Shown in pieces: positions 8,289 through 42,768 of a stretch of DNA of 51,665 bases; the stretch's first letter is position 1, and each line of letters starts with the position of its first letter. The notes beneath the pieces were generated by a model. It made no database searches. It was not told where the DNA came from and worked only from the letters and a program-made list of their open reading frames with translations. The stretch comes from an uncultured Pirellula sp. (GTDB lineage: Bacteria; Planctomycetota; Planctomycetia; Pirellulales; Pirellulaceae), in the NCBI GenBank assembly GCA_903930765.1, contig CAIYZV010000118.1:1-51665 (forward strand), given 5' to 3'. The position numbers and the translations under genes were made by a program.

Positions 8289-9290
8289 ATGAAATCAGTC
8301 CGTTTGATTGTAGGGTGCGGCTATGTGGGAACCCGTGTGGCCGCCCGCTGGCTAGCAAACGGAGATCGAGTGCTGGCCATAACCAGGACTGAGGAACGAG
8401 CTGCTGAGCTGCGGGTGGCTGGAATCGAGCCGATCGTTTGGAATTGGCTTTCGCGGGAGTTGCGAGCGGAACTTCCGCCGGTTCCGCTCGCGACAATACT
8501 TATCGCCGTTTCTCATTCTCCTCCCCCTGGACAGTTGCCTGAGACCGCACATGCCGTGGGATTGGAGAATCTTTGGTGCTGGATGCGATCGCAGGAAGTC
8601 GCAGTGAGTCCGAACGGCAGCGCGCGGGCCGAGCCTCGCTGGGTTTACCTCTCGACCACAGGGGTTTTTGCACCTACGGGAAGTGTTAATCATGGCGCGG
8701 AATGGGTCGATGAATCGTCGGCGGTTGGCCCTGTGCGGCCTGGTTCGATCGCAGCGTTGGGAGGGGAAGATTGGATCAACAAGTCGCTTTCAGCGGAGGA
8801 TCGCGTGATTCTACGGCCTGCCGGAATCTATGGTCCGGATCGCGTTCCGCGTTGGCAAGCGATCCGCGATCAGAAACCTCTCGAAGTTGACCCCGCAAGC
8901 TACTTAAACTTGATCCATGTCGACGATTTGGTAACAGCGATTCTTGCTGTTGCAGATCACGCAGCACCGAGCGCTCTGTACTGCGTCAGCGATGGAAATA
9001 GTCCAACTCGCCAGGAATACTACGAATGGATTTCGCAGTGGATGGGCTTACCGCTCCCGGTTTTTGCTGAGGGCGGAGAGTTACCCAGTCGAGAATTACC
9101 GACCGAGACCACAACGGGGGAGCCGATGATTGGTATGCAGGACAGGGTATCGAAAAAAAATCGACCTGTTTCACGCAGCGACTCGAACAAGCGAGTCAGC
9201 AATCGAAAACTAGTAGCGGAATTGAACCTCCAATTTCAGTATCCAACGTTTCGCCAAGGGCTTCAATCCTTGATGCACCATCCTCAATGA
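8289..9290 (+). CDS. Extended SDR / NAD-dependent epimerase family protein (YeeZ-like)
   Basis: Cytoplasmic NAD(P)-binding protein related to sugar-nucleotide epimerases; the substrate is unknown. The Rossmann motif is IVGCGYVGTRVA near residue 7. A WVYLSTTGVFA segment holds the usual active-site Ser/Thr strand, and RPAGIYGPDR and NLIHVDDL are typical of the family. The canonical YxxxK is not obvious, as in other YeeZ-like members. The ATG at 8289 is preferred over the TTG at 8283. The last codons lie in a 10-bp tandem duplication that also creates the start of the next gene, so the two are probably co-transcribed. Confidence 0.8.
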   Translation: MKSVRLIVGCGYVGTRVAARWLANGDRVLAITRTEERAAELRVAGIEPIVWNWLSRELRAELPPVPLATILIAVSHSPPPGQLPETAHAVGLENLWCWMRSQEVAVSPNGSARAEPRWVYLSTTGVFAPTGSVNHGAEWVDESSAVGPVRPGSIAALGGEDWINKSLSAEDRVILRPAGIYGPDRVPRWQAIRDQKPLEVDPASYLNLIHVDDLVTAILAVADHAAPSALYCVSDGNSPTRQEYYEWISQWMGLPLPVFAEGGELPSRELPTETTTGEPMIGMQDRVSKKNRPVSRSDSNKRVSNRKLVAELNLQFQYPTFRQGLQSLMHHPQ

Positions 9291-9300
9291 TCCTCAATGA
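9281..9300 (+). repeat. 10-bp perfect tandem duplication holding a stop and the next start codon
   Basis: tcctcaatga occurs twice in a row. The first copy supplies the TGA of the SDR-type gene (9288-9290) and the second the ATG of the amidohydrolase (9297-9299). Each copy contains an ATGA, so a single copy could have served as a normal overlapping stop/start. Confidence 0.92.
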
Positions 9301-10499
9301 TTCCACTGAAACGATTTTTCGCAATAGTCTTATCGGTATCGGTCTTTCTCGTTCCCGATTCTGGTTTGGGGCAATCGACAGATGTAGCCCCTGATGTGGC
9401 TTCTGATGTGGCTTCTGCATCGGAGCGAGCACCCAGTGCCAAATTGCGAGTTACCGACGTGCTGTCGGCGCGTTTTCCGGTCGTAGACATCCATACACAT
9501 TTTTACGTCAAGGCCAAGCATGATCCTGAGTTGCTCGAGCGTTATGTCGAATGGATGGATCGCAATAACATTGCTGTCAGCGTCTCTCTCGATGCTCAGC
9601 TCTCTCAGCGTTTGGACTCGCACGAGGAGTATCTCTGGCGGAAGTATCGCGACCGATTTGTGTTGTTTGCAAATATCGATTTCCAAGGGAGTGGTAAACC
9701 GGACGAACCGAGTACTTGGGCCTGCAACCAGGATGGCTTTGTTCCAGACGTCGTGGCGCGATTGCGGGTGGAGCACCAACGAGGACGCATCAGTGGACTA
9801 AAGTTTTTCAAGGATTTCGGACTGCGATGGAAGAACCGTGATGGGTCGAAGATTCGCATTGATGATCCTCGATGGGATCCGATTTGGGAAGTTTGTGGAC
9901 GATTGCAGTTACCTATCTTGATGCACACGGCGGATCCCAGTGCATTCTTTCGTCCCATCGATTCCCACAATGAGCGGGAAACCGAATTGCGAGCGCATCC
10001 CGATTGGTCGTTCTTTGGTGAGGAATTTCCATCTCGGTCGGAATTGCACGCAGCCAGGAACCGGGTGATTGCTCGTTTTCCCGGGACGATCTTCATCGCT
10101 GCACATTTGGGAAATGACGGCGAGGACCTACAGCAACTTGCTGGGTGGTTGGATGAGTATCCAAACTTGATGGTCGAGATTTCGTCTCGCATCAATGAGT
10201 TGGGAAGGCAGCCCTATCGATCCAATGAGTTTATAGAGAAGTATTCGGATCGGGTCTTCTTTGGGACCGATGGGCCATTTCCTGAAGAACGACTTCGTAT
10301 CTACTGGCGATTTCTCGAGACGCGAGATGAGTACTTTCTGTACTCGGAGAAGTCACCTCCTCCCCAAGGGGATTGGAGAATCTATGGTCTGGGGCTCTCC
10401 CCCGGCACCTTGGAAAAAGTCTATTCTGGCAATGCCATACGGGTAATTCCAGGTGTTGCAGCTCGACTGGAAAAATATCGAGCTCGGAGTAATCCATAG
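9297..10499 (+). CDS. Exported amidohydrolase-family metal-dependent hydrolase
   Basis: 400-residue TIM-barrel hydrolase of the amidohydrolase-2 group (COG2159-like); the substrate cannot be told. A signal peptide is visible (MIPLKRFFAIVLSVSVFLVP...GLGQS), so it acts outside the cytoplasm. Metal and catalytic motifs are DIHTHF (64-69), the barrel His in LMHTADP, FIAAHLGN and FFGTDGPFP, whose Asp is the expected catalytic acid. Just after the signal peptide the DVAPDVASDVAS stretch is coded by a 12-bp repeat (9381-9416). The start codon lies in the second copy of the 10-bp junction duplication. Confidence 0.85.
   Translation: MIPLKRFFAIVLSVSVFLVPDSGLGQSTDVAPDVASDVASASERAPSAKLRVTDVLSARFPVVDIHTHFYVKAKHDPELLERYVEWMDRNNIAVSVSLDAQLSQRLDSHEEYLWRKYRDRFVLFANIDFQGSGKPDEPSTWACNQDGFVPDVVARLRVEHQRGRISGLKFFKDFGLRWKNRDGSKIRIDDPRWDPIWEVCGRLQLPILMHTADPSAFFRPIDSHNERETELRAHPDWSFFGEEFPSRSELHAARNRVIARFPGTIFIAAHLGNDGEDLQQLAGWLDEYPNLMVEISSRINELGRQPYRSNEFIEKYSDRVFFGTDGPFPEERLRIYWRFLETRDEYFLYSEKSPPPQGDWRIYGLGLSPGTLEKVYSGNAIRVIPGVAARLEKYRARSNP
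9381..9416 (+). repeat. 12-bp in-frame repeat after the amidohydrolase signal peptide
   Basis: Three units of gatgtggcttct, the last two identical and the first diverged, coding DVAP-DVAS-DVAS. Confidence 0.85.
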
Positions 10500-10522
10500 T
10501 TGCGGGCAATGGGTTAAGCTGT

Positions 10523-10587
10523 TAGCCCGAACCTAATCGGTTTTCCCTCCATCTGTTACCTTCCGTCAGCAAATCGTAATCGGGCTA
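10523..10587 (+). promoter_or_regulatory. 8-bp inverted repeat spanning the leader of the DUF485 gene
   Basis: tagcccga (10523-10530) and its exact complement tcgggcta (10580-10587) enclose about 49 nt. The right arm ends on the first base of the start codon, so pairing could mask initiation. An 8-bp match at this distance may be chance. Confidence 0.25.
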
Positions 10588-10841
10588 TGCATCATTCAGC
10601 AAATACCGTCGAGCATGAATCGGTTTCTGTAATCCAGCGGCGCCAGCGCATCGGATTGATCCTGCTCTCTCTCTTCAGCATAGCCTATGGGGGCTTTATC
10701 GCTCTGTGCGCCTTTGCGTACCAATGGATTTCACAAACGCGGGTTTCGGGGATTCCTCTAACGGTGGCCTATGGAGTTGGACTGGTTTTTTTCTCACTGG
10801 CCATTGCCATGATCTACGGGCTACTGTGCCGAGATAAGTAG
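10587..10841 (+). CDS. DUF485-type small membrane protein
   Basis: 84 residues with two predicted membrane segments (about 22-48 and 56-80). The arrangement matches the DUF485 (YjcH-like) proteins normally coded next to acetate/cation symporters, which is exactly the case here: the symporter begins 113 bp downstream. Its role, probably as a partner of the transporter, is inferred from this conserved pairing. Confidence 0.75.
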   Translation: MHHSANTVEHESVSVIQRRQRIGLILLSLFSIAYGGFIALCAFAYQWISQTRVSGIPLTVAYGVGLVFFSLAIAMIYGLLCRDK

Positions 10842-10954
10842 CTAGGTTTCGTTTTGGTTTCTCATCGATAGTCGGGAATCGACGATGGTCCGTCGTCGCT
10901 CCAACGCAAACAAACTCCAACGCCAACAAAATAGTGTAGTTCGCGAGTAGTATT

Positions 10955-12691
10955 ATGGTTTACGAATCCAGCCCAGTGGCGATTGTCGTGTTTGCTCTGA
11001 TGGTTTCAGGAACGATCGGGCTCAGTTTTTACCTCGGTGCTCGAGCGCGTTCGAGTGCTGGCTACTTTGCAGCAGGTGGTTCTATCCACTGGTTCGTCAA
11101 CGGGATCGCATTTGCGGGAGACTATCTTTCGGCTGCGTCGTTCCTAGGTATCTGCGGCAGGATTGCATTTTATGGCTTTGATGGATTCCTCTATTCGATC
11201 GGCTATCTGGCGGGTTGGTTGGTTGCGTTGCTGGTGATCGCCGAGCCTTTGAAGCGACTTGGTAAGTACACATTCGCGGATGCGCTGGCGAGCAAATTTA
11301 AGTCCGAGGGGATTCGAACCGCAGCGGGTTTCAGCACATTGGTGGTGAGTCTGGTGTATCTCGTTCCGCAGATGGTTGGAGCCGGTGCGTTGGTCAAGCC
11401 GCTACTCGGGTTGCAGTACTGGCAAGGAGTTGTTTTGGTAGGATCGATTGTCGTGATTATTGTCGTCACGGCGGGGATGGTCAGTACGACGTACGTTCAA
11501 TTCCTCAAGGGCGGATTGCTAGTCATCTTTTCGTTGGTCTTGACGATTCTAGTACTCAATCGGGGAATAAACGTCTCGCAGGAGGGAGCACGCACTACTT
11601 CACAACGGATCACCCTTGATTCCAACCAAAAGAAATTGGTGGATGGAGTACCTTTGGGATTGGGGAAAGATCAGCGGAATGTGCAACCTGTCGGCCGAGT
11701 GCTAGAGCTTTCAGAAGGCCGGCTTTCGACGGGGCCTCTTGGGCCTGTCAGCTTCCTGACCGAGTTGTCAGGAAGCACCATCGAACTGTCTCAGACGACG
11801 AAAAGTACGAGCGATGGTAGTCCAGTTATTGAGTATGCCCCACACCCCGTGAAGGGAGACTCGATGATGGCGCCTGGGAATCTCCCAACCTTCAAAGGGA
11901 TTCGAGACGATCAGTGGTTCCCCAAGTTGGATTTTATTTCTTTAATGCTTGCGCTCTTTGGCGGCACAGCGTCTTTGCCCCATATTCTGATCCGGTATTA
12001 CACGGTTAAGGATCAATCGTCCGCAAGAAAGAGCACGATTGTCGGAATCGGCGCGATCGGCTTTTTCTACATGCTGACGCTGTACATCGGATTTGGAGCC
12101 ATGGTCAGTGGGGCTCTTGATCCCAGCGATTCGAACATGGCCGCGCCACTCCTTGCAAAAAGCTTTTCGGAGCTTCTCTTCGCGGCTGTTTCCGCGATTG
12201 CGTTTACGACCGTACTCGGGACCGTCAGTGGATTGATTGTTGCCGCCGGTGGATGCGTTGCACACGATTTTGTAGGTGGGATGCTGGGACTGAAACTCAG
12301 CGATCAGCAGTTAATTCGTGTCGCTAAGATTTCCTCGATCGCGATTGGGGCCATCGCCATCCTGTCCGGGCTCGCCTTCGAGGGGATGAACGTCAGCTAT
12401 CTCGTGGGCTGGGCGTTTGCAATTGCGGCATCTGCAAACCTACCAGCACTGCTGATGCTGTTGTTTTGGAAGAGGACCACCAAGCAGGGAATTATTGCAG
12501 GAGTGTTGGTGGGATTGCTTACGTCGGTTGTATGGATCGCGGTTTGTCCCGAGATGTTCAAGAATCTATACGGATGGGACCCTAAGGGTGCGTGGGTTCC
12601 GTTCAGCCAACCTGGATTGGTTACCATTCCGTTGAGTTTTCTAGTGATAACCCTCGTTTCTTGGCTCAGCAGGGAACCCCAGAAAGCCTAG
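10955..12691 (+). CDS. Sodium:solute symporter family permease, acetate (ActP)-like
   Basis: 578-residue inner-membrane carrier of the SSS family, probably taking up a monocarboxylate such as acetate with sodium. The family motif GDYLSAASFLGI lies near residue 56, and about 13 hydrophobic segments are visible. A soluble insertion of roughly 110 residues (about 205-315, rich in Ser, Thr, Gly and Gln) interrupts the membrane segments just before LDFISLMLALFGGTASLPHILIRYY; such a loop is absent from typical enterobacterial ActP. The upstream DUF485 gene supports the ActP-like assignment. Substrate specificity is not shown by sequence alone. Confidence 0.85.
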   Translation: MVYESSPVAIVVFALMVSGTIGLSFYLGARARSSAGYFAAGGSIHWFVNGIAFAGDYLSAASFLGICGRIAFYGFDGFLYSIGYLAGWLVALLVIAEPLKRLGKYTFADALASKFKSEGIRTAAGFSTLVVSLVYLVPQMVGAGALVKPLLGLQYWQGVVLVGSIVVIIVVTAGMVSTTYVQFLKGGLLVIFSLVLTILVLNRGINVSQEGARTTSQRITLDSNQKKLVDGVPLGLGKDQRNVQPVGRVLELSEGRLSTGPLGPVSFLTELSGSTIELSQTTKSTSDGSPVIEYAPHPVKGDSMMAPGNLPTFKGIRDDQWFPKLDFISLMLALFGGTASLPHILIRYYTVKDQSSARKSTIVGIGAIGFFYMLTLYIGFGAMVSGALDPSDSNMAAPLLAKSFSELLFAAVSAIAFTTVLGTVSGLIVAAGGCVAHDFVGGMLGLKLSDQQLIRVAKISSIAIGAIAILSGLAFEGMNVSYLVGWAFAIAASANLPALLMLLFWKRTTKQGIIAGVLVGLLTSVVWIAVCPEMFKNLYGWDPKGAWVPFSQPGLVTIPLSFLVITLVSWLSREPQKA

Positions 12692-13031
12692 AAAAGCTGG
12701 ACTTCTGCTGATTCCAAAAACCCTATCGGGCTCCGACGCACTATCCGACGTACCAACGGTCGATTGCGGGCGAGCCAACTTTAGCTCTTTCGCCCTTTCT
12801 GGATGCCATCTGCTCGCGCCCGGTGTTGCTAATCGGAACCATCGTCATAAACGGCCTTGCTATTCAGAGAAAGTTTTCCGTTTGGGTACGATGCGCCAGG
12901 TCTATGAGCCATGTTTGGACTAAGGATCCCTGGGCCCGATGATGGGCAAGTCCTGCGAGCGCGATCGACGATGGTAGCAACGGGCTACTACGCTGCGTTC
13001 CGGTTAACAGATTTTTCTGCAGCCAAGAATC
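12692..13031. other. Intergenic region, 340 bp
   Basis: Separates the symporter from the HlyD/M50 cassette. Only very short reading frames are present; one of 70 codons (12911-13123) runs into the next gene out of frame and looks spurious. No tRNA, clear promoter or T-tailed hairpin seen. Confidence 0.55.
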
Positions 13032-13868
13032 ATGCATTCCAAACGAACCATCCTCGGAATTATCTCCGTTCTGTGCGTGGTATTTGCAGCGGAACAAACG
13101 TTTGCTCAATCCGCACTCCCTAGACGGGCTACCGACGTCAAAGAGGACGCCCTTCGGGGGGTCCTCGAGGCTCATCTCAATACCGAAGTTGCAACGGCAG
13201 AAATTGGAGTTATCAAAGAGATCGCGGTCAAGCCTGGAGACAAAGTGAAGCGAGGGCAAAAGATAGCCCAGTTGCAAGATAATCTGCAACGCATTCAAGT
13301 CGAAGAGGCGGAGATCGAGTGGCAGTCTCAAGGCACAATCGATACCGCACACCATGAATACGAGTTCAATCGTCGAAAATTCGTCGCTATCCAAGATCTT
13401 TCCAAGCGAACTCGCGTCAGTCCATTGGAATTGAAACGCGAAGAATTGGAAATGAACATTTCCCATTCGAAATGGATCGCGCAACAAGAAGCAAAAGAAA
13501 TCGCTTATGCGAGATTGGTCAAAGCGATGAATGCGCTTGACGACCGTACTGTTTCAGCCCCCCACGATGGCATCATCGTTGAGGTTCTGCACGATGTCGG
13601 CGAATACGTTGCCGCCACGCAACCCGCGATCGTTCGGATGATGGACACGTCGAAGCTGCGAGCCCGATTTTTGTTGAGCGATGAAATGGCACAGAAATTC
13701 CGCGAGCGGAAAACGGCCAATGTTCGATTGCTCAATGGGGTTGTGGTGAGTGCAGAGATCGAGTTCATTGCACCTATCGCGACCGAAAATATCACTCAAA
13801 TGACGATTCTCATCGATAATTCGAACGACGATATTCGATCGTCTGCCTGCGATTTAATCCGTCCCTAA
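13032..13868 (+). CDS. Exported HlyD-type periplasmic adaptor
   Basis: 278 residues with a signal peptide (MHSKRTILGIISVLCVVFAAEQTFAQS). The lipoyl/barrel-sandwich halves are visible as IGVIKEIAVKPGDKVKRGQ (about 57-75) and VSAPHDGIIVEVLHDVGEYV (about 174-193), with a helical hairpin between them and a short beta-barrel after. This is the layout of RND/ABC membrane-fusion adaptors, here without a membrane anchor. It is the first gene of a three-gene cassette, all coding adaptor domains, with gaps of 20 and 16 bp. It presumably forms part of a periplasmic conduit or scaffold with the next two products. Confidence 0.82.
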   Translation: MHSKRTILGIISVLCVVFAAEQTFAQSALPRRATDVKEDALRGVLEAHLNTEVATAEIGVIKEIAVKPGDKVKRGQKIAQLQDNLQRIQVEEAEIEWQSQGTIDTAHHEYEFNRRKFVAIQDLSKRTRVSPLELKREELEMNISHSKWIAQQEAKEIAYARLVKAMNALDDRTVSAPHDGIIVEVLHDVGEYVAATQPAIVRMMDTSKLRARFLLSDEMAQKFRERKTANVRLLNGVVVSAEIEFIAPIATENITQMTILIDNSNDDIRSSACDLIRP

Positions 13869-13888
13869 CCCTCTGACTTTGGATAACC

Positions 13889-15514
13889 ATGAGCTCTGGC
13901 TCAACGACACCAACGACCAACGGAGACGATCTCGATCGAACCGCCGAAGTAAATTCGGTGGGCGAGGGGGGGGCGTTTGATCTGGCTGAGGATATCAGGC
14001 GGATTTGCAAACCTTCCGTTGCTCCAGCAAACGAAGGTTTGATTGACAAGATAGCGTCGCTCCTGTCAGGTTTGACTGCTGAAGGAACCCAAACGGCAGG
14101 TCCGAGTGCTCGTCGCTCTAGCCATGTTGAGTTCAAGTCCACTCCGGATCCTTCGACGGGCGATTCCGACACGCCGGCCTTTCCGCAGAGCAATAGTGTA
14201 AATCTGTTTTCCCCGCTCTGCTTGCAGCAAGTTGCCGAGTCGGTTGCGAGGTTCACCACGGAGCGAACTGCGATCCTGGTTCTATCACCTTCCGGAAATG
14301 TCGTGGAGAGTGGCCAATGCGGTTGGCGATCTAGCGAATTCCGAATCTACTTGTCGGATCTGACCACGGTCGCACGTGAGTCACTTTGGAGCAAGTCCGG
14401 GCACTACGCGATCGTGGAACCTGATTGGATCAATGACGTTGAAGCCTTCCAAAAGCTTGTGTTTCAGCCCAGTTTGCTTTTGAGTCAATGGACGCAAAAA
14501 CTCGGTGATCGTGCGGTCGCGGTCAAAACCTTTCCGCTCCAAGAATCCAGGGGCAGTTGTTTGATGATTTGCAGTGTGGAATCATCAACTGCTCGTGAAC
14601 GATTCGCGAAGCTTTGCGAAAACAGTTTTGAGCATGTCGCGACGCAAGTTGATGCGTGGTATGCCATTCGTCGAAACCGAAAGTTTTCGAGATGGATTGG
14701 GATCGTGGATTGGATGGTATCGAATCCTCGCTGGTGTGCTATCCCCGTGGCATTGATGATCCTGCTGATGACACTCCCGATTCCGTATTTTCCAAAGCGA
14801 GAGTGTGTCATTGAACCTGAGGCGAAACAGTTTGTTGCTAGCCCGATACAGGGCCGAATTGCGACATGCGCAGTGCGTCCTGGAGATTTCGTAAATAAAG
14901 GGGAGCTTTTAGCGACGATCGACGACGATCAAATGCAACGTGATCTGGCGACCGCAAAGGCGGAATTCGAATCGGCGAAGCAAAAGGCGAATGCGGCCCT
15001 TGCGAATAAAGCGTCCAGCAATTATTCACTTGCGATGCTCGAGTGCGAACAAGCTCAATTGAAGATCGACAGCATACAAAACCAGTTAAACCGTCTCGAA
15101 ATACGAACTCCGGTCACTGGTGTCGTCATCTACGGTGATCTTCAAAAGAGCATTGGGATGCCGGTCAATTTAGGTCAAAACCTTTTCGAAGTCGCCGAGC
15201 TCGGATTGATGACCGCTGAGGTGCGACTGACAGCATACGACTTGGAGCAAATCTCTGTTAGCGATACGGTTACAGTTCGCTCTGATGCGACGGGATTCCG
15301 AGCATTCCACGGCAAAATTCTCCGTATCGATCCAAGGGCCACAGTCATCGAGAACGAGGCGGTTTTCGTGGCGGATGTACTAATTCGAGACTCGGAATCA
15401 GGGCTGCGCCCCGGGATGAAAGCCTCCGCTCGCATCGGAGCGGGATGGCGAACGTTGGGATGGTTACTTTTCCATCGACCCGTTCAGTGGCTATCACAGC
15501 AGTGGGTCTGGTAA
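13889..15514 (+). CDS. GAF-like domain, membrane segment and HlyD adaptor fusion
   Basis: 541 residues. The first about 90 are low in complexity. Residues about 105-265 look like a GAF sensor domain (LCLQQVAESVARF, TAILVLSPSG, LMICSVESS). A single membrane segment follows at about 282-302 (IPVALMILLMTLPIPYF), then a periplasmic adaptor with split lipoyl halves (ATCAVRPGDFVNKGELLATI and LEIRTPVTGVVIYGDL) around a coiled hairpin, and a barrel (AEVRLTAYDLEQISVSD). A cytoplasmic sensor joined to a periplasmic adaptor would let an internal signal control an envelope assembly; that link is inference. The gene sits between the exported adaptor and the M50 gene. Confidence 0.78.
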   Translation: MSSGSTTPTTNGDDLDRTAEVNSVGEGGAFDLAEDIRRICKPSVAPANEGLIDKIASLLSGLTAEGTQTAGPSARRSSHVEFKSTPDPSTGDSDTPAFPQSNSVNLFSPLCLQQVAESVARFTTERTAILVLSPSGNVVESGQCGWRSSEFRIYLSDLTTVARESLWSKSGHYAIVEPDWINDVEAFQKLVFQPSLLLSQWTQKLGDRAVAVKTFPLQESRGSCLMICSVESSTARERFAKLCENSFEHVATQVDAWYAIRRNRKFSRWIGIVDWMVSNPRWCAIPVALMILLMTLPIPYFPKRECVIEPEAKQFVASPIQGRIATCAVRPGDFVNKGELLATIDDDQMQRDLATAKAEFESAKQKANAALANKASSNYSLAMLECEQAQLKIDSIQNQLNRLEIRTPVTGVVIYGDLQKSIGMPVNLGQNLFEVAELGLMTAEVRLTAYDLEQISVSDTVTVRSDATGFRAFHGKILRIDPRATVIENEAVFVADVLIRDSESGLRPGMKASARIGAGWRTLGWLLFHRPVQWLSQQWVW

Positions 15515-15530
15515 CACAAGAAGTGACATC

Positions 15531-16625
15531 ATGAATCCAATTGCATTTCGGCTTCGCTCTGACCTCCATATCGCCCCCGTCCGATCCGGCAACGACTTGA
15601 AATACATCGTTGATGACAAGTTGTCTGGAAGGATTGTTCGGCTTGGGAAAATGGAATACACCCTTTGCTCGTTGTTCGTAAAGCCGATGCTGCTCAACGA
15701 CGCAATCGAAATCCTGCAAGCTTATGGCGAAAGCGAGGGCGTCGATCCTGGCAAGCTGCAGAAGTTGGTGTCATGGCTTATGCAATCGGGACTTCTCGAA
15801 CCCGCAACCGCACCGGAGTTCACGGAATCTGCCCTTCAAGACACCAAATCAAGCCCGCTGGCACCGAAGCCCAAAGCTCCTGTTCGACCGTTTGACCCGA
15901 GTTTCGTCCGGTTCCCGCTATTGTCGGGTAAGTGGATCCATTACTTTTGCCAGCCATGGAAATTCCTTGTTTCATGGCCGAGTCTGATCTGTGCGATCTC
16001 GATCTGGGTGACAGGGGCCGTCTACGCATTTAGCAATTGGCAGGAACTCAATTCCGTTACCAGTGAATTGTTCATTCCCGGCAGCCAGTGGTGGTGGTTG
16101 ATCGCTTGGCTAATCTTGAAAGCGGTACACGAAGCGGGGCATGCGATCGCGTGTGAGCGGGTTCATGTTAGGACATCCGGCGCAGGCGTCGGATTTATTT
16201 TTTTCGCACCATCTCCTTATGTCGACGTGTCCCGATTATGGACGCTTGAAAACAAATGGTACCGGATGTTGGTTAGCAGCGCCGGGATGATTTTTGAATT
16301 GACCCTAGCAGCCATCTGTGCCATCGTCGCCTGTTCCACCGAGAACAACAATCTACGATATCTTTGCGCTTCGATTGCTTCGCTGGGAACCGTGACGACG
16401 TTCGCCTTCAACGCGAACCCACTCATGCGTTACGACGGTTACTATATAATGATCGATTGGCTGGGGCGACCGAATTTGTGGCAGGATGCAAATCGGGCCA
16501 TGAGAGGCTTCGTTCGCTCGCTAATTACCAAGGATAGCGAAGTTAGTTACGGTACGCCGATGGTTATCCTTTATGGGATCGCTTCGTGGATATCCAGGAT
16601 GGTTGTCATCATCACTATGGGATGA
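15531..16625 (+). CDS. PqqD-like domain plus M50 intramembrane metallopeptidase, cut short by in-frame TGA
   Basis: 364 residues up to a TGA at 16623-16625. Residues about 10-92 resemble a PqqD/RRE-type winged helix (YIVDDKLSGRIVRLG ... LVSWLMQSGLLEP). The membrane part has the M50 zinc site HEAGHA (His200, Glu201, His204) and the second-ligand motif NPLMRYDGYY (about 296-305, Asp302). The same frame continues past the TGA with membrane and HlyD-type sequence to 17672, so the intact gene was very likely one open frame coding a protein of about 713 residues. A single change (for example TGG or CGA to TGA) would explain it. Without the C-terminal adaptor this product may be inactive or partly working. 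Fourth-gene partners such as an ABC ATPase were not found nearby. Confidence 0.78.
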   Translation: MNPIAFRLRSDLHIAPVRSGNDLKYIVDDKLSGRIVRLGKMEYTLCSLFVKPMLLNDAIEILQAYGESEGVDPGKLQKLVSWLMQSGLLEPATAPEFTESALQDTKSSPLAPKPKAPVRPFDPSFVRFPLLSGKWIHYFCQPWKFLVSWPSLICAISIWVTGAVYAFSNWQELNSVTSELFIPGSQWWWLIAWLILKAVHEAGHAIACERVHVRTSGAGVGFIFFAPSPYVDVSRLWTLENKWYRMLVSSAGMIFELTLAAICAIVACSTENNNLRYLCASIASLGTVTTFAFNANPLMRYDGYYIMIDWLGRPNLWQDANRAMRGFVRSLITKDSEVSYGTPMVILYGIASWISRMVVIITMG

Positions 16626-17672
16626 GGTGTCTTCATTGCATGGGATGGTGTTGGATTAGCCATCGTTTCATTTTTCGTCGGGATTTGGTTCGTCTTTCCA
16701 TTTCTCGCGAAACGAAAAACCAGTCAATCTCCACAGGCCGCTTCGCTTTTCGCATCGATCTGCCCAAAGAAAACATTACGGGCATCCCTCGTAGGCTTGG
16801 GCGTTGCACTGCTCGGGTTTGCTCCAAGTCCTCTTCAGGTAGTGTGGCCCGGTGTGGTGGACTTCGTTGAGCCACAGGAACTGAGGACCGATGTGTCAGG
16901 TTTCATTCGAAGTGTCCATGCATACGATGGCCATTATGTAACCGCTGGTACTTGTATCTTGGAGCTTTCGAATCCTGATGTGGAGTTGGAGTGCGAACGG
17001 GCTAGGACTGAGTTCTTACTCTGCAGCGAACGATGCAACAGCCTACGCACTCAGCAAAAATTGACCGAACTGCAAAATGAGGAATCGTTGCTTGAGTCAC
17101 TTCGGGTGAAGCTCCAAAGCCTGGAGAAGAAAGTGGAGTCGCTTCAAGTGCGAGCGCAGCGGGATGGGGTTCTTATCGCCCGAGACTCCAAGCATTGGAC
17201 AGGAAGTTTCCTGCAAGAAGGAGCTATGTTGGGATTGATTGCGAATCCGAGCCAGTTGGAGGTCCGAGCATCTATCCCTCAATCGGAATGGGATCGGGTT
17301 TCAAGAAATCTGGGGAAATCGGTTATGGTTTACCGTTCATCGGACGGTTCGATCCTCGGGCAACTGCTCCGCTCGATGCCCCACGCAGAGCAATATGTCG
17401 ATTATCCATCGTTGGCCGCAATCTACGGAGGTCCGCTCGTGGTATCCGTCGATCGAAAGCCAGATGGCTCCGAAGAACTGAAAACCGATCAACCGCGATT
17501 AGCGGCGCATGTCGAATTGAGCAATCCACGAGATCGGTTGCCTCAAATAGGAAGCGTGTGCACGATTCGTTTCTCCGATGGCTACGAATCGATTTGGAAA
17601 ATGCTCTATCGCAATGGAGCGGCCTTGCTCGATCGCAAACTACCCACAACGATCGACGACAGTAACAGCTAG
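16626..17672 (+). pseudogene. C-terminal half of the M50-HlyD protein, downstream of the in-frame TGA
   Basis: This is the same reading frame as the M50 gene, directly after the TGA. It codes a continuing membrane segment (GVFIAWDGVGLAIVSFFVG), a basic loop, another membrane segment (LVGLGVALLGFAP) and a periplasmic adaptor: VDFVEPQELRTDVSGFIRSV, HYVTAGTCILELSNP, a coiled hairpin, VRAQRDGVLIARD, then a barrel to the end. There is no in-frame ATG near its 5' end; a TTG at 16797 could restart translation but would leave out the first membrane segment. The stop codon lies in a 21-bp tandem duplication. It could be a nonsense allele, a sequencing error, or readthrough; I regard the first two as most likely. 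Confidence 0.72.
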
Positions 17673-17705
17673 GCCAAAAACGCGAACAGCTAGGCCAAGA
17701 ACGCG
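17664..17705 (+). repeat. 21-bp tandem duplication across the M50-HlyD stop codon
   Basis: Two adjacent 21-bp copies (17664-17684 and 17685-17705) beginning aacagctaggcca differ at one base. The TAG stop (17670-17672) is in the first copy; the second carries a further in-frame TAG at 17691-17693. Confidence 0.92.
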
Positions 17706-17762
17706 AAGCGTAAAGTCAGTTGGAAACGGAAGGCTCGCGGAGGACGGATCGCTTGCCGAGTG

Positions 17763-17804
17763 CTGGGCCTGATTTTCTGGGCCTGATTACTTGGGCCGAT
17801 TACG
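17763..17804 (-). repeat. 14-bp tandem repeat across the SDR stop codon
   Basis: ctgggcctgatttt (17763-17776) and ctgggcctgattac (17777-17790) are followed by a third, diverged copy (ttgggccgattacg). The stop of the minus-strand SDR gene (17787-17789) lies in the second copy. Confidence 0.82.
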
Positions 17805-18581
17805 AATTCGGAACATCTCTTGATAGGGAAGTACGATCCCGCCGTCGATGGAAAGAGTCGCTCCCGTGATGTAGTCGCTTCTCGGGTCGCACAAAAAGAC
17901 GATGCCGTGCGCGATGTCTTCCGGTTTAGCAAGCCTGCCCCAGGGCAAGTTTTCACCATGTTGTTTTAGCTCATCTTCGAAAAAGAACTTGCGCTCGCCG
18001 GGAGTGTCGGTCCAACCCGGGTGAACGATATTGACCCTAATGCGATGTTCTGAGAGCTCTACGGCTGCCGTTCTCGCCATCTGGTCCAGTGCAGCTTTGC
18101 CCATGTTGTAAGCCATCGCGCCAGGGATAGCTTTGTAGGCGTGTGGGGAACTAACGAAGACCATGTTGCCACCTGTACCGCGAGGTATCATCTGATTTGC
18201 GACAGCCCTCGCCAAATAAAATGGGCCCCACATGCAAACATCGATCGTTTTGCGGAAACCATCCATGTTTGCCGCGTAAAACAATTCACGGTCACTGTAC
18301 GCTGCGTTGGAGACCAAGATCGAAATCGGTCCGAGTTGCTCCTCGCAAGCCCTCACCATGGATTCGACGGTAGCTTGATCAGAAACGTCACCGACCAATC
18401 CAATCGCATTCACACCGGCAGACCGACACGCCGCCAGGGTCTCGTTCGGCTCTCGAAGATCGTTGATGGCTACGTTGGCACCAGCCTCCGCGAGTGCAAT
18501 GGCGACAGCGGCTCCAATACCACGTCCACCACCCGACACGAGAGCTGTTTGGCCAGCCAAGAGTTTGGTCGATTCCGACAT
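17787..18581 (-). CDS. Short-chain dehydrogenase/reductase (FabG-like)
   Basis: 264-residue classical SDR oxidoreductase, NAD(P)-dependent, substrate unknown. Motifs are the cofactor loop SGGGRGIGAA (about 16-25), LVSNAAYS at the NAG position, Ser in FVSSPHA, the catalytic pair in YNMGKAALDQ (Tyr and Lys four apart) and the PG-type motif HPGWTDTPGE. The last, SITGATLSIDGG-like segment reads YITGATLSIDGG. The start at 18581 is preceded by two AAAGGA-like sites. It is convergent with the M50-HlyD gene; the tail ends in a 14-bp repeat. Confidence 0.9.
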   Translation of the reverse strand: MSESTKLLAGQTALVSGGGRGIGAAVAIALAEAGANVAINDLREPNETLAACRSAGVNAIGLVGDVSDQATVESMVRACEEQLGPISILVSNAAYSDRELFYAANMDGFRKTIDVCMWGPFYLARAVANQMIPRGTGGNMVFVSSPHAYKAIPGAMAYNMGKAALDQMARTAAVELSEHRIRVNIVHPGWTDTPGERKFFFEDELKQHGENLPWGRLAKPEDIAHGIVFLCDPRSDYITGATLSIDGGIVLPYQEMFRIRNRPK

Positions 18582-18837
18582 ATTCCTTTGAATCCTTTAG
18601 TTCCGGAGCGATGAAGGCCGCATCAACATTCGGAAAGACGATAATCAAATCGGTGAACTTGTCTATCCCCACAGAAAACACAGAATCGAAATCGTACATC
18701 GACTCGCGGAACGCTCGAGCATTTCCGTTAAGAAACGCTTCGTGATCGAGTGAGGCATGAGAGGACGCTCGCCTCAAAATAGAGCGATCGAAAGCTCACG
18801 CGCGCCTGCAAATGAGCAAAGTCTTGAGCCGCAGCGG

Positions 18838-21523: not shown

Positions 21524-22330
21524 ATGCGCTCTTTGCAGGCCCTCCAATTTCACTCCCAATGCACTCAGGATGCCGTGACCGAACCCCCTCGTTCGATGTC
21601 CGGATTGTCCTTGGTCGTCCCTTGCTTCAACGAAATCGAGGGAATCGAAACGTTGCGGACGCAACTCGAGGATCTGCGGAGGCGATGCTCCGGCCACTTC
21701 GATCTCGACGTGATTTTGGTGGACGACGGGAGCAACGACCGTACGGCGGACGAATTACCCAGGGTATTCGAATCGTTGCCGTGGGTGACGGTTATTCTCC
21801 ACGACCGCAATTGTGGGGTGGCCGCGGCAATTTTGACAGGGATCAAGGCATCTCGGCAAGAGTATGTCGCTTCGATGGATGCGGACTGCACTTATGCACC
21901 CATCCAATTGCTTCAGCTTTGGGAATGCATGGATAGCGAGACGTCGATGGTGACGGCTTCTCCGTATCACCCCGAGGGCCGCGTCGAAGGGGTACCGGCA
22001 TGGCGGCTGGCTCTTTCCAAGAGTGCATCGCGTGTCTATCGGACGGTGACTGGGAGTTCGATCCACACGTTTACTAGTTGCTTTCGGATCTATCGACGTC
22101 GCGATTTCGACGGCCTGCAACTGAAGAATCAAGGGTTTGTAGGGATCGCTGAAATGTTTTGGTGGATAAAGAAACAGGGTGGATCGATCCGTGAGGCACC
22201 AGCAACGTTGACGACGCGGAAAACTGGATTTTCGAAAATGAGAACAGTACCCGTGATTTGGGCGCATCTGCAGTTGATCCAACGGATTGCATGGGAGCGA
22301 TTTTTCGATGCGACTAACAAATGCGGCTAA
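21524..22330 (+). CDS. Family 2 glycosyltransferase
   Basis: 268-residue GT-A glycosyltransferase like those that add sugars to lipid carriers (dolichyl-phosphate mannosyltransferase type). Motifs are LSLVVPCFNE at the N-terminus, VILVDDGSNDRT, NCGVAAAILTGI, and the DxD-like SMDADCTY. There is no C-terminal membrane segment. Start choice is uncertain: ATG 21524 gives a 24-residue lead before the conserved sequence, GTG 21575 has AGGA 4 nt upstream, and ATG 21596 begins directly at the fold. It opens the polysaccharide block. The final codons and stop lie in a 13-bp duplication, which probably changed the C-terminal residues. Confidence 0.87.
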   Translation: MRSLQALQFHSQCTQDAVTEPPRSMSGLSLVVPCFNEIEGIETLRTQLEDLRRRCSGHFDLDVILVDDGSNDRTADELPRVFESLPWVTVILHDRNCGVAAAILTGIKASRQEYVASMDADCTYAPIQLLQLWECMDSETSMVTASPYHPEGRVEGVPAWRLALSKSASRVYRTVTGSSIHTFTSCFRIYRRRDFDGLQLKNQGFVGIAEMFWWIKKQGGSIREAPATLTTRKTGFSKMRTVPVIWAHLQLIQRIAWERFFDATNKCG

Positions 22331-22333
22331 CAA
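22308..22333 (+). repeat. 13-bp tandem duplication across the glycosyltransferase stop codon
   Basis: atgcgactaacaa (22308-22320) and atgcggctaacaa (22321-22333), one mismatch. The TAA stop (22328-22330) is in the second copy; because 13 is not a multiple of 3 the first copy is read in another frame. Confidence 0.9.
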
Positions 22334-22466
22334 ATCGAAAGGCATCCCCAGAGAACACCACGTCGAATCCTAACCTGAACGATAAGCCCGCCAAAAAAGC
22401 AAGACGGCAAAAAGAGAAACGCGCATTCAACCGACCGCAGTAGGCCTGTTTAAAGAATTTACATCC

Positions 22467-24792: not shown

Positions 24793-25403
24793 CAAATCGG
24801 GTCCATGCTACTGCACTGGTTGAAGAAGGCGTCTTATTAGGAGAGGGAACTTCCGTTTGGGATCACGTTCATATACGCCATGGCTCCGTCTTGGGTGACC
24901 AATGCATCGTGGGAGGAAAGACGTATATCGCTTACGATGTGAAGATAGGAAATCGCTGCAAGATCAACTCGAATGTGTATATCTGCAATGGTGTCACCAT
25001 CGAGGATGGAGTGATGATTGCTGCTGGCACTATTTTTACCAATGACCGTTTTCCCCGCGCGGCAACCTCGGACTTAACCGCCCTCCGGTCGAGCGATCCT
25101 GACGAATCGACCGAACGGACACTGGTGCGCTGCGGAGCGACCCTAGGAGCGGGATCCATCGTCGGTAGTAACCTTACCATCGGAAGATGGGCCATGATCG
25201 GAATGGGGGCGATCGTTACGTCGGACATCCCAGATTTTCATTTGGCTCTAGGTGCACCGGCAAAGAGTATTGGCGCGGTGTGCCGCTGCGGGACTCCTTT
25301 TGTGCGATTTTCGGATTCCATCGAATCGGAGCAGACGCATGTGTGCGATGTTTGCCAGAGTCGCTACCAGCGTTTAGGACAAACGATTCGTGAGTTGGAA
25401 TAA
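24789..25403 (+). CDS. Hexapeptide-repeat sugar N-acetyltransferase (WbpD-like) with C-terminal Cys4 motif
   Basis: 204 residues; the ATG at 24789 overlaps the upstream TGA. The left-handed beta-helix pattern is clear (HATALVEEGVLLGEGTSVWD, IGNRCKINSNVYICNGVTIED, GATLGAGSIVGSNLTIGRWAMIG). The VHIRHGSVLG and FTNDRFPRA segments resemble UDP-sugar N-acetyltransferases of the WbpD/PglD sort. It likely acetylates the amine made by the DegT enzyme. After the helix comes a CRCG...CDVC tail that could bind zinc, a feature not needed for the transferase fold. The stop lies in a 13-bp duplication. Confidence 0.88.
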   Translation: MTNRVHATALVEEGVLLGEGTSVWDHVHIRHGSVLGDQCIVGGKTYIAYDVKIGNRCKINSNVYICNGVTIEDGVMIAAGTIFTNDRFPRAATSDLTALRSSDPDESTERTLVRCGATLGAGSIVGSNLTIGRWAMIGMGAIVTSDIPDFHLALGAPAKSIGAVCRCGTPFVRFSDSIESEQTHVCDVCQSRYQRLGQTIRELE

Positions 25404-25416
25404 CGAGTTGGAATAA
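25391..25416 (+). repeat. 13-bp tandem duplication across the acetyltransferase stop codon
   Basis: tgagttggaataa (25391-25403) and cgagttggaataa (25404-25416), one mismatch. The first copy ends exactly in the stop TAA. Confidence 0.9.
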
Positions 25417-27783: not shown

Positions 27784-28190
27784 CAAACTCTTTTCGATCA
27801 AATTCGGTTCGAACAACGCCGCGATGCGACCGTGGCAAGATGTGACCGTGGCAATGCGTGTCGAGAAACAACGCAAACGTTGCGGACACCCGGTTTGCCC
27901 CAAATTATAGGGAGCCTCGCGAAAATGGGGACTGCCGGAACGGGGAATTTGGGCCTTTGTAAAGCTTCTATTTCTCTCCGCAAAGACGTCCCGGTATCGT
28001 TTTTCCTGTTCTTTGGGACCTTTCCCGTGTCTCGATGAACCACCTGCGCTAGGAAAGCGTAAACGGAAAGTGCGCGAACTCGGCGCTCGATACTTCCCGC
28101 TTTTGTTTTTCGCCCCCGTCCCGAAAACGCGAGCGGCGGCCCCCTTCGATTCCGTCTGTCCACTTCTCCCTTATTACTTACGCGATTCCA
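27784..28190. other. Divergent intergenic region, 407 bp
   Basis: Lies between folC (-) and the ABC operon (+). It holds the 16-bp repeat at 27823-27854. Reading frames there (for example 27478-28038 +) look like antisense or run-on frames. No tRNA or clear promoter box was found. Confidence 0.5.
27823..27854 (-). repeat. 16-bp tandem duplication in the folC leader
   Basis: gatgcgaccgtggcaa (27823-27838) and gatgtgaccgtggcaa (27839-27854), 15 of 16 bases equal, 40-71 bp upstream of the folC start. Confidence 0.9.
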
Positions 28191-32791: not shown

Positions 32792-32825
32792 CGAAGCCCA
32801 CTGATGCACGAAGCCCACTGATAAA
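32792..32825 (+). repeat. 17-bp tandem duplication between the ABC operon and the rhomboid gene
   Basis: cgaagcccactgatgca (32792-32808) and cgaagcccactgataaa (32809-32825); the first 14 bases are identical. Confidence 0.88.
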
Positions 32826-32855
32826 CACCGAGAAGGTCTGCTAAAATACCCCAGT

Positions 32856-33752: not shown

Positions 33753-33796
33753 CGTAGTTCGCTCACGGGTTGCAGAATAACCCCATCGCACAACAC

Positions 33797-35271: not shown

Positions 35272-35287
35272 CACACACCCATAATCC

Positions 35288-35316
35288 TTCAGTGATTACT
35301 CCGAGTTGCTTATAAC
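35288..35316 (+). promoter_or_regulatory. Candidate promoter for the glutathione peroxidase gene
   Basis: TTCAGT (35288-35293) and TATAAC (35311-35316) are 17 nt apart, 45 nt before the start codon; AGGA stands 7 nt before the ATG. Confidence 0.45.
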
Positions 35317-35361
35317 CCGGTTTTGTTTCAAAGCCCCTGTCCCCCCCTTTAGGAACCGTTC

Positions 35362-35934: not shown

Positions 35935-35958
35935 TTCGAGGTCCTCGACCAACTAGTT
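35929..35958. terminator. Imperfect palindrome between convergent stop codons
   Basis: aactagtt at each end and cgagg/cctcg inside form a hairpin on either strand. The GPx stop TAG (35932-35934) is in the left arm and the stop of the minus-strand gene (35953-35955) in the right arm. Probably a bidirectional terminator, though T-runs are lacking. Confidence 0.4.
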
Positions 35959-38475: not shown

Positions 38476-38498
38476 TGAGAAACTCGAATCAGCGGATC

Positions 38499-39896: not shown

Positions 39897-40213
39897 CAAT
39901 ACTTGCTGGGACTACTTGCTGGAGCTTTGGTAACCTACAAAGATCCGAACAACTTTTTCGAATCTTCCGATTGTGTCGGCTTCTACACTCCTGCGCCGTG
40001 AAGCTTTTTCGCAAAGAGGCAACGCTAGCAAATCGCGACTGCCTCAAGGCAGGTTTTTGGATGCACCAGTAGCGCTCATCGCGGACAGTCGGTTTGTTTC
40101 AAAGGGTCAGCAATAGCCGCGGTTTACGAATACCAGGAATCCGGTAAGCCGCACAAACCGGGTATGTTCACCGGTGCGGTTGTCAGTTAGGCAGTTGCCA
40201 GTGAATAGGATCG
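39897..40213. other. Intergenic region, 317 bp
   Basis: Holds a 13-bp repeat next to the start of the gene at 39896 and an inverted repeat (ccgcac at 40149-40154, gtgcgg at 40174-40179) that could end the minus-strand gene starting at 40798. The inverted repeat has no T-run. Confidence 0.45.
39900..39925 (-). repeat. 13-bp tandem duplication just upstream of the start at 39896
   Basis: tacttgctgggac (39900-39912) and tacttgctggagc (39913-39925), 11 of 13 equal, in the leader of the minus-strand gene. Confidence 0.75.
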
Positions 40214-40798: not shown

Positions 40799-41118
40799 GC
40801 TTGACTCCCCTTCGATTCCCATGTTTCCCATCGACCCCTACAGGACTTGTTCTCGCAATGGGTGCGCCCACTGTGCAATCCATCAGGGAAAAGTAGATAA
40901 CAAGTGGTGTGCCGAAACCAAAAGATTTTTTCGCATTCGTTAAAATCACTACAATCAGATAGACTCTTTAGGTGGATGGCGGGGGAGCCGTGGTCTTTTG
41001 AAGAGGTCGGGGCTGTCCATGATTTGATCACACCGTGCATGATTTGATCACACCGTGCATGATTTGATCGACGCACTGTTTTCCTTATCTTTCCTTTATC
41101 GAACTTGGAACACCGACG
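40799..41118. other. Divergent intergenic region, 320 bp
   Basis: Contains an A/T-rich stretch (40900-40970) and the 20-bp tandem repeat at 41018-41069. It must carry the start regions for the small exported protein and for moaB. Confidence 0.5.
41018..41069 (+). repeat. 20-bp tandem repeat upstream of moaB
   Basis: Two perfect copies of catgatttgatcacaccgtg (41018-41037, 41038-41057) and a third partial copy (41058-41069). Each full copy holds the palindrome TGATCA. It ends 49 bp before the moaB start, so it could be an operator, or simply another local duplication. Confidence 0.92.
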
Positions 41119-41667: not shown

Positions 41668-41671
41668 AAAC

Positions 41672-42688
41672 ATGCGCTTGTTTTGCGTCGGAAAAATGTC
41701 AGCGGTGGGGGCGAACCGTTCCGGTCTTCACAGCGATCGCCGGTCCGCGAATGCATTGGTACTTGGTTGCCTGCTCAGCAGTTGTTTCTACACGGAGCGT
41801 TCGCTCTCCGCGCAAGAATTACGATCCGACGTTGGTCCATCTCAAACTCCTGAAACGCAGCGGTCGGATGCATTGGATTTGTCCCAAAAGCCCCCAGTCG
41901 AGTCCGACTCGCCACAAAAAGGGGCCATGAAGATTAAGGTAAAATACAACGTTCCGTATTGCGAACAAGGAGACCCGTACCAGCGATGCGATCTCTACAT
42001 GCCGATCGACTCAGGAGTTTATCCGGGGATCATTATGATTCATGGAGGTGCATGGGTCGCGGGAGATAAAGCCAACGATTCTGGACATGCGCGAAAGATC
42101 GCCTCCAATGGTTATGTCGTCATGGTGATCAACTATCGATTGGCACCCAAGCACAAGCATCCTGCGCAGATCGATGATTGTTTCGAAGCGTTGAATTGGA
42201 TGAATCGCAACGCCGAAGAATTGAGGGTCGATTTGTCCCGCCTGGGTGTTTGGGGGTATTCCGCGGGAGGGCATTTGGCAGCATTGGTAGCTACAAATCC
42301 CAGGTCGGATCTTCCTCGTGTTCGCGCCTGCGTCGCTGGCGGTGCTCCTTGTGACCTCGAGTTGATTCCCTCGGAGAGTTCGTTGCTAGCAGGATTTCTC
42401 GGCGGGACGCGTCAGGAAATCCCCGACGTCTACGTCGAAGCGTCCCCGATCCAGCACGTTTCATCCGACGACCCTCCGATCCTGTTATTTCACGGCGATG
42501 GAGACAAACTGGTGCCGATCCAATTTGCTGAACGAATGCGAGGAAGGCTTGAGGCCAAAAGTGTTCCCCACGAGTTCATCACGTTGCCGCGAAAATCCCA
42601 CATCATGGCATTCGTTGACCCGAAGGCGCTCAATGCATCGATCGAGTTCTTCAACAAGCACTTAAAGGAATTGGGTTCCAGCAAATAG
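41672..42688 (+). CDS. Exported alpha/beta hydrolase (esterase/lipase family)
   Basis: 338 residues. The N-terminus has a hydrophobic stretch ending LVLGCLLSSCFY (about 28-38), which may be a lipobox or an ordinary signal. The hormone-sensitive-lipase-type fold shows the oxyanion motif MIHGGAW, nucleophile elbow GYSAGGH (Ser about 184), the acid in FHGDGDKLVP and the catalytic His in RKSHIMAF. ATG 41672 is used because it lies after moaB with AGGGA upstream; ATG 41654 overlaps moaB by 14 bp. The substrate is unknown; an acyl ester or carbohydrate ester fits the family. Confidence 0.88.
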   Translation: MRLFCVGKMSAVGANRSGLHSDRRSANALVLGCLLSSCFYTERSLSAQELRSDVGPSQTPETQRSDALDLSQKPPVESDSPQKGAMKIKVKYNVPYCEQGDPYQRCDLYMPIDSGVYPGIIMIHGGAWVAGDKANDSGHARKIASNGYVVMVINYRLAPKHKHPAQIDDCFEALNWMNRNAEELRVDLSRLGVWGYSAGGHLAALVATNPRSDLPRVRACVAGGAPCDLELIPSESSLLAGFLGGTRQEIPDVYVEASPIQHVSSDDPPILLFHGDGDKLVPIQFAERMRGRLEAKSVPHEFITLPRKSHIMAFVDPKALNASIEFFNKHLKELGSSK

Positions 42689-42735
42689 AAGACAGCATCG
42701 CGAGATTCGAAGTTTGATCGCCCCGAATCACTTTT

Positions 42736-42768
42736 CCGTATTATCGCGTTACCGTATTATCGCGTTAC
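42736..42768 (-). repeat. 16-bp tandem duplication across the stop of the 860-residue gene
   Basis: ccgtattatcgcgtta occurs at 42736-42751 and 42752-42767. The stop codon of the minus-strand gene (42757-42759) lies in the copy nearer the gene; the other follows it. Confidence 0.92.

What the first reader, a model, noticed from the sequence alone, without database searches (positions are those of the whole stretch)
9281..42768. Short tandem duplications recur across stop codons and other gene boundaries
By eye I find adjacent direct repeats of 10-21 bp at 2550-2579, 9281-9300, 17664-17705, 17763-17804, 22308-22333, 25391-25416, 27823-27854, 32792-32825, 39900-39925, 41018-41069 and 42736-42768. 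Six of them (9281, 17664, 17763, 22308, 25391, 42736) contain a stop codon in one copy. Copies are mostly 90-100% identical, so they are recent, and most unit lengths are not multiples of 3. They sit where coding constraint ends. A mutational process that makes small tandem duplications (slippage, or staggered-break fill-in and joining) is the simplest cause; a role as spare stop codons is possible but less likely, since the second stop is often out of frame.
Basis: partly seen in the sequence, partly recalled or inferred. Interest (0 to 1): 0.75.

Follow-up and report, generated by a model that had tools for sequence, protein, structure and literature searches.

The report
Fifteen-base tandem duplications in a planctomycete
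This freshwater planctomycete keeps making small head-to-tail copies of about 15 DNA letters, which survive where they break no reading frame; they mark no stop-codon device, but their narrow size range and high rate look unusual for bacteria.

Summary
The window holds 15 near-perfect adjacent repeats against 1.7 in shuffled sequence. The stop-codon link does not hold: outside the window 5 of 35 non-coding duplications in the same genome touch a stop, as chance gives (14%). Frame decides: 26 of 27 coding units in this genome are multiples of 3, and density is 8-9 times higher outside genes. Of 28 tested against a relative 90% identical, 15 lack the extra copy there, 5 share it, 8 are unresolved. 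The unexpected part is size. Perfect units over 10 bp fall almost wholly in 12-22 bp, mode 15, and gaps between the two close genomes have a second peak there (31 gaps against 14 of 3-8 bp; proteobacterial pairs 5 against 13). E. coli K-12 has none in 200 kb, this genome 45 in 360 kb. Ku is absent from the genus (0 of 25), so Ku-dependent joining is unlikely. Best reading: microhomology-assisted misalignment of a displaced strand of about 15 nt in replication or repair, filtered by selection. The enzyme is unknown.

The parts
209..250 (+). 12-bp array, about 3.5 copies, in a hypF-like gene
   Evidence: TRF; a 24-base insertion relative to G018
281..307 (+). 12-bp tandem duplication in the same gene
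   Evidence: one copy in G018, though the stricter scoring leaves it unresolved
2549..2577 (.). 15-bp duplication upstream of hypC, old
   Evidence: TRF 92%; two diverged copies in G018 as well
4157..4207 (+). 18-bp array, 2.8 copies, in a hypE-like gene
   Evidence: 18-bp insertion against G018
9280..9301 (+). 10-bp duplication that splits an ATGA stop/start overlap: first copy keeps the stop (9288-9290), second the start (9297-9299)
   Evidence: single copy in G018 and G007; sequence
9391..9417 (+). 12-bp duplication near the start of an amidohydrolase gene; 3-bp microhomology
   Evidence: single copy in G018 and G007; h=3
10899..10930 (.). 16-bp duplication between genes
   Evidence: single copy in G018
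17664..17707 (+). 21-bp duplication across the stop of a HlyD-like gene
   Evidence: one copy in G018, unresolved by the stricter scoring
17761..17803 (.). 14-bp partly degenerate array across the stop of the SDR gene on the minus strand
22308..22335 (+). 13-bp duplication across the stop of a glycosyltransferase gene
   Evidence: two copies in G018; no clear second copy in G007 by eye
25391..25416 (+). 13-bp duplication across the stop of a hexapeptide-repeat transferase gene
   Evidence: one copy in G018, two diverged copies in G007: a likely loss in G018
27823..27854 (.). 16-bp duplication upstream of a Mur-ligase-like gene
   Evidence: two copies in G018, one in G007
32792..32825 (.). 17-bp duplication (15/17) between genes, shared with G018
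39900..39925 (.). 13-bp repeat (11/13); G018 has a further 18-bp duplication here
41018..41069 (.). 20-bp array, 2.6 copies, between genes
   Evidence: single copy in G018 and G007
42736..42771 (-). 16-bp duplication across the stop of a minus-strand gene; 4-bp microhomology
   Evidence: two copies plus a further diverged one in G018, one in G007; h=4
51510..51554 (-). 15-bp array, three copies, in an Hsp70-like gene; one copy more than in G018; a contig break lies here
   Evidence: contig C410 overlaps the window end by exactly 141 bases and stops after two copies

Best explanation
The repeats are products of a recurrent mutational process, not functional elements. In this Pirellula-like lineage a strand segment of about 15 nt (12-22) is displaced during replication or repair synthesis, pairs again one unit out of register, often helped by 3-5 bp of microhomology, and is sealed in as a direct copy (ABA to ABABA). 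The length is set by whatever sets the displaced strand (an Okazaki primer or flap, or a repair patch). Duplications that shift a reading frame are removed by selection, so survivors lie in non-coding DNA, across stop codons, or in genes as multiples of 3. Shown: the duplications, that many are recent, their size range, the frame rule, enrichment in this clade, excess microhomology, absence of Ku. Inferred: the displaced-strand step and the source of the 15-nt length.
For: 15 versus 1.7 expected. Relatives lack the extra copy at 15 of 28 tested sites (examples). Unit lengths of perfect duplications in 1.1 Mb of four genomes of the genus: non-coding 12-16 bp 42, 17-22 bp 13, 23-40 bp 0; coding 12:4, 15:25, 18:11, 21:1, 33:1 (copies shared by two genomes count twice). 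Gap spectrum own x G018 (133 kb): 1-2 bp 40, 3-8 bp 14, 9-11 bp 10, 12-22 bp 31 (14 strict duplications), 23-60 bp 10, two longer; seven proteobacterial pairs (112 kb): 34, 13, 1, 5 (0 strict duplications), 4, one longer. Frame: 26 of 27 coding in own genome, 63 of 72 over four genomes. Microhomology of 3-5 bp in 22 of 57 perfect duplications (21 of 78 with longer overlaps left out) against 5% expected. No hairpin tendency (mean z -0.001, n=78) and no GC bias. Ku 0 of 25 in the genus. The 141-base contig overlap ends where a 2-copy and a 3-copy allele would part, which suggests live variation.
Against: 35 of those 57 have microhomology of 2 or less, 18 have none, so strict direct-repeat slippage cannot be the whole story. 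Slippage is expected to favour short lengths (recalled), not a peak. The repair defects I could test are not there: Pol I 5' nuclease domain in 30 of 30 genomes, RecJ in 16 of 17 with the Streptomyces genome the miss, XseA in 17 of 17. The two-peaked spectrum rests mainly on one species pair: other pairs of the genus (46 kb) give 5 gaps of 3-8 and 5 of 12-22 (1 strict duplication), own x G007 (59 kb) 4 and 4, and four other planctomycete pairs (23 kb) 14 and 1. Density varies within the genus (G002: 1 unit of 12-22 bp in 160 kb). The frame rule is looser in G018 (21 of 25) and G005 (13 of 17).
Confidence: 0.6

Rival explanations
1. Staggered double-strand breaks with overhangs of about 15 nt are filled in and rejoined, duplicating the overhang.
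For: Gives a defined size and needs no microhomology, as in 18 of 57 cases with none. The one Streptomyces locus, whose genome has two Ku matches, has many adjacent repeats (14 in 21 kb).
Against: No Ku in 25 of 25 genomes of the genus, the single-contig G005 included (some of the 25 are only 76-83% complete). Microhomology is in clear excess. The loci of the four other Ku-bearing genomes (L053, L079, L087, L090) have 4, 1, 1 and 0 adjacent repeats, so Ku does not track repeat density.
Confidence: 0.15
2. Ordinary replication slippage between short direct repeats, with no special length, the apparent peak being made by loss of longer repeats and by chance matches hiding shorter ones.
For: Excess of 3-5 bp microhomology. 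There is also an excess over shuffles of perfect units of 6-10 bp. Perfect repeats of 23 bp or more may be lost faster (inference).
Against: The peak is also in gap lengths between species, where 3-8 bp events are not hidden by chance (14 against 31 of 12-22). Coding gaps of 15 bp (6) are as common as those of 3 bp (5). Control pairs run through the same pipeline show no such peak.
Confidence: 0.2
3. The duplications are kept as spare stop codons or boundary elements.
For: Five of 8 non-coding ones in the window touch a stop.
Against: Not seen outside the window: 5 of 35, 4 of 32, 0 of 7, 1 of 14, all near or below expectation. In-frame coding copies and intergenic copies away from stops are as characteristic.
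Confidence: 0.02
4. Assembly artefacts of metagenome binning.
For: The own genome is a draft of 527 contigs, the named records matching G018 and G007 are MAGs, and one array sits at a contig break.
Against: Some copies are shared, with differences, by own and G018 (22308, 27823, 42736), 26 of 27 coding ones keep frame, and the single-contig genome G005 has them too (23 of 12-22 bp in 400 kb).
Confidence: 0.03

Closest known systems
Short tandem duplications as the main class of short insertions in primates and flies (Tanay and Siggia 2008, PMC2374710; passages seen)
   Same: Inserted sequence is a copy of its neighbour; [quoted passage not shown]
   Different: The passages seen speak of near-geometric lengths with some excess of long ones; here there is a second peak at 12-22 bp, and in bacteria.
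Direct-repeat duplications ABA to ABABA in yeast rad27 (FEN1) mutants (PMC5677150; passages seen)
   Same: Short repeat A at both ends of the unit; a 16-bp unit example; copy number unstable.
   Different: There B spans 1-91 bp and A 1-21 bp and a flap nuclease is missing; here the Pol I 5' nuclease domain is present, sizes are narrow and many events lack microhomology.
Bacterial minisatellites (VNTR loci; recalled)
   Same: Tandem arrays whose copy number changes.
   Different: Here mostly two- or three-copy duplications of unrelated sequence spread over the genome.

Membership tests
Slippage-type tandem duplication (ABA to ABABA) | second copy adjacent and absent from the orthologous site of a relative | tested here: met
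   extra copy lacking in G018 at 15, present at 5, unresolved at 8 of 28
Slippage-type tandem duplication (ABA to ABABA) | short direct repeat at the two ends of the unit before duplication | tested here: inconclusive
   microhomology of 3-5 bp in 22 of 57 (5% expected), but 35 of 57 have 2 or less
Slippage-type tandem duplication (ABA to ABABA) | lengths falling off steadily (recalled as the usual expectation) | tested here: not met
   second peak at 12-22 bp, mode 15, mainly from one species pair
Ku-dependent end joining | Ku gene in the genome | tested here: not met
   0 of 25 genus genomes; the positive control Bacillus subtilis was found
Okazaki flap-processing defect (rad27/polA type) | 5' nuclease missing | tested here: not met
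   PF02739 in 30 of 30 genomes, 12 of them of the genus; activity not testable
Dispersed intergenic repeat family (REP/MITE) | units of different sites share sequence | tested here: not met
   59 non-coding units in four genomes; by inspection no shared unit apart from one orthologous pair and one neighbouring pair; best 4-mer 14 against 5.1 expected
Stop-codon device | stop codons hit more often than other non-coding sites | tested here: not met
   not met in the four sets outside the window, met in the window itself (5 of 8)

The most novel reading that the evidence does not exclude
Some planctomycetes carry a mutational process with a built-in ruler of about 15 nt: an enzyme or replication intermediate of fixed length repeatedly duplicates adjacent DNA, with or without microhomology, and supplies a large share of the indels above 8 bp (own x G018: 31 of 53 such gaps are 12-22 bp, 18 of 53 are strict duplications), including 5-residue steps in proteins.
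Probability: 0.3. Interest if true: 0.75.

Novelty: new variant of a known kind. Interest (0 to 1): 0.5.

Why it matters
Insertion-deletion spectra are usually taken to fall off with length. A bacterial lineage whose indels have a peak near 15 bp points to a replication or repair step of fixed size that model bacteria lack or suppress, and shows how proteins and gene junctions gain short segments; the 9280 site splits a stop/start overlap in one step. It can be tested in cultured relatives.

Tried and rejected
Stop-codon preference: only in the window. Ku end joining: gene absent. Missing Pol I 5' nuclease, RecJ or XseA: present in the genus genomes searched (12, 10 each). Hairpin-driven slippage: no fold signal in the single-copy contexts. 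Common motif or repeat family: none seen. A plasmid search with 567 bases of one gene gave nothing. Ten literature searches listed no paper that I recognised as describing a bacterial duplication process with a size peak; two of them listed nothing, they cover open-licence PMC papers only, and only two papers were opened (passages). and 38 counts for the own genome include two stretches that read N; one search repeats them without these. A contig-end scan found repeats of 9 bp or more at 4 of 36 ends, three of them ends of the window or C410, so breaks at arrays are not general.

Rows dropped: the Streptomyces locus L074 from the non-planctomycete total (it has 8 perfect repeats of 10 bp or more, five of 12-22, in 21 kb), and L036 and L053 from both totals (titles at odds with the planctomycete group; with them and without L074, 2 units of 12-22 in 636 kb). 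L089, in the non-planctomycete set, is titled Planctomycetota; one search finds no repeat in it. Loci that repeat stretches of G000, G018 or G007 (L001-L004, L014, L015), the genus loci L005-L013 and the loci that came were not in the totals, apart from those that are part of the sets named there. Gaps with flank identity under 75% were left out of the own x G018 spectrum (154 to 107); the same filter was used for all pairs.
Full report
What was checked. The window is one contig (C118) of a draft genome of 5.7 Mb in 527 contigs; by one gene its nearest named relatives are MAGs titled uncultured Pirellula sp. and Planctomycetota bacterium. With unit 9-40 bp and at most 10% mismatch it holds 15 adjacent repeats, against 1.7 +/- 1.6 in 60 dinucleotide shuffles. 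Five more lie in genes with units of 12, 12, 18, 12 and 15 bp, one of 16 bp lies between genes (10899), and one of 10 bp (14913) is the kind chance gives.

Dating. One relative (G018) aligns over the whole window at 90.2% identity and another (G007) over its right half at 79.7%; further G007 contigs cover nearly all of the left part that was searched (bases 1-19500). Three-way alignments show single copies in both relatives at 9280, 9391 and 41018, two copies in own and G018 but not clearly in G007 at 22308, 27823 and 42736, and at 25391 a likely loss in G018 (read by eye, and the scoring rates the G007 flanks too diverged at most sites). Over four own contigs (134 kb), 28 duplications have a G018 orthologue: 15 lack the extra copy in G018 (at 51510 this means two copies against three), 5 have it, 8 are unresolved. 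In the other direction, 38 G018 duplications were tested: 18 have no own orthologue in the contigs at hand, 6 lack the extra copy in own, 8 have it, 6 are unresolved. So copies have been gained in both lineages since they parted. At 9280 the duplication split an ATGA stop/start overlap: the upstream gene now ends in the first copy and the downstream gene starts in the second.

Where they sit. With a simple hexamer gene caller, the own genome sample (360 kb, N stretches left out) has 70 duplications of 11 bp or more: 27 coding, 10 over a stop, 1 over a start, 32 elsewhere. Of the 27 coding, 26 are multiples of 3; of the other 43, 21 are. Density outside genes is 8-9 times that inside. In relatives the coding multiples of 3 are 21 of 25 (G018), 3 of 3 (G007) and 13 of 17 (G005). 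Stop codons are not special: outside the window the share is 5 of 35 with 14% expected (P=0.55), and 4 of 32, 0 of 7 and 1 of 14 in relatives. Start codons look avoided: 2 of 96 non-coding duplications over all five sets, when random placement puts about 12% there (starts are called less surely than stops). The 10-bp duplication at 9280, which touches a stop and a start, is below the 11-bp floor of this count.

Size. Perfect duplications in 1.1 Mb of four genomes of the genus: non-coding 11:0, 12:8, 13:4, 14:5, 15:15, 16:10, 17:1, 18:3, 19:1, 20:4, 21:1, 22:3, none of 23-40; coding 11:0, 12:4, 15:25, 18:11, 21:1, 33:1. Own and G018 share some of these, so they are not all independent. At 6-10 bp there is also an excess over shuffles (non-coding 6:48 against 32, 7:28 against 9, 10:4 against 0; coding 6:371 against 207, 9:14 against 4), but chance matches make the shortest hard to read. 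Between own and G018 the gap lengths are 1-2 bp 40, 3-8 bp 14, 9-11 bp 10, 12-22 bp 31, 23-60 bp 10, longer 2; 14 of the 31 are strict duplications. Seven proteobacterial pairs through the same pipeline give 34, 13, 1, 5, 4 and 1, with no strict duplication of 12-22 bp, at higher divergence (14% against 7.9%). Per thousand substitutions that is about 2.9 gaps of 12-22 bp against 0.3. Two control species are used twice, and the control loci all lie around one gene. Other pairs do not show the peak on their own: genus pairs (46 kb) 5 gaps of 3-8 and 5 of 12-22, own x G007 (59 kb) 4 and 4, other planctomycete pairs (23 kb) 14 and 1.

Lineage. Perfect units of 12-22 bp: own 45 in 360 kb, G018 32 in 363 kb, G007 6 in 100 kb, G005 23 in 400 kb, G002 1 in 160 kb, other genus loci 5 in 127 kb, other planctomycete loci 14 in 444 kb, G030 3 and G029 1 in 200 kb each, E. 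coli K-12 0 in 200 kb, non-planctomycete loci 0 in 612 kb without Streptomyces. The Streptomyces locus has five in 21 kb. So the trait is strong in this clade, uneven in the genus, and not unique to it.

Mechanism. Among 57 perfect duplications of 12-22 bp (21 of 78 with overlaps above 6 bp, mostly third copies, left out) 22 have 3-5 bp of microhomology, against 5% expected; 18 have none. Units share no motif that I could see, have no GC bias and no hairpin tendency. Ku is absent from 25 of 25 genus genomes and present in 5 of 72 genomes searched in all; loci of those five have 14, 4, 1, 1 and 0 adjacent repeats. Pol I 5' nuclease, RecJ and XseA are present in the genus genomes searched (12, 10 and 10). 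I therefore favour misalignment of a displaced strand of about 15 nt, with microhomology helping but not needed. That the length reflects a primer, flap or repair patch is inference.

Live variation. The window's right end overlaps contig C410 by exactly 141 bases, and C410 stops after two copies of the 15-bp unit of which the window has three. A graph assembler would break there if 2-copy and 3-copy alleles coexist; reads are needed to show it.

Known work. Short insertions in flies and primates are mostly tandem duplications (PMC2374710, passages). Yeast rad27 mutants make direct-repeat duplications, one with a 16-bp unit (PMC5677150, passages). I found no report of a size peak near 15 bp in bacteria in ten searches of open-licence papers (listed in Tried and rejected), which is weak evidence of absence.

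Verdict. The feature is real and its cause most likely mutational; the stop-codon framing is not borne out; the narrow size and the lineage enrichment are the parts worth following.

Noticed in passing
L101:16051-16287 and further places in G000: A dispersed repeat of about 230 bp with 38 further full or partial matches (72-97% identical) over many contigs of the own genome (40 of 69 candidates scored, so a lower bound); perhaps a MITE-like family.
   Followed up: no
window 51480-51665: The right end overlaps contig C410 by 141 bases; the Hsp70-like (DUF3731) gene 49338-51665 appears to run on into C410, so its listed start is probably not the real one.
   Followed up: partly
L131:1-91 (own contig C410 start): Contig starts inside a 16-bp array of more than five copies.
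   Followed up: no
L074 (Streptomyces roseicoloratus locus): 14 adjacent repeats in 21 kb, far above the other non-planctomycete loci; its genome has two Ku matches and no RecJ match.
   Followed up: no
window and four-genome sample: Start codons seem avoided by duplications: 2 of 96 non-coding ones, about 12% expected by random placement.
   Followed up: partly
window 1-5259: Hydrogenase maturation genes (hypF part, hypB-like, hypC, hypD, hypE-like) in a Pirellula-like genome; no hydrogenase structural gene was looked for.
   Followed up: no
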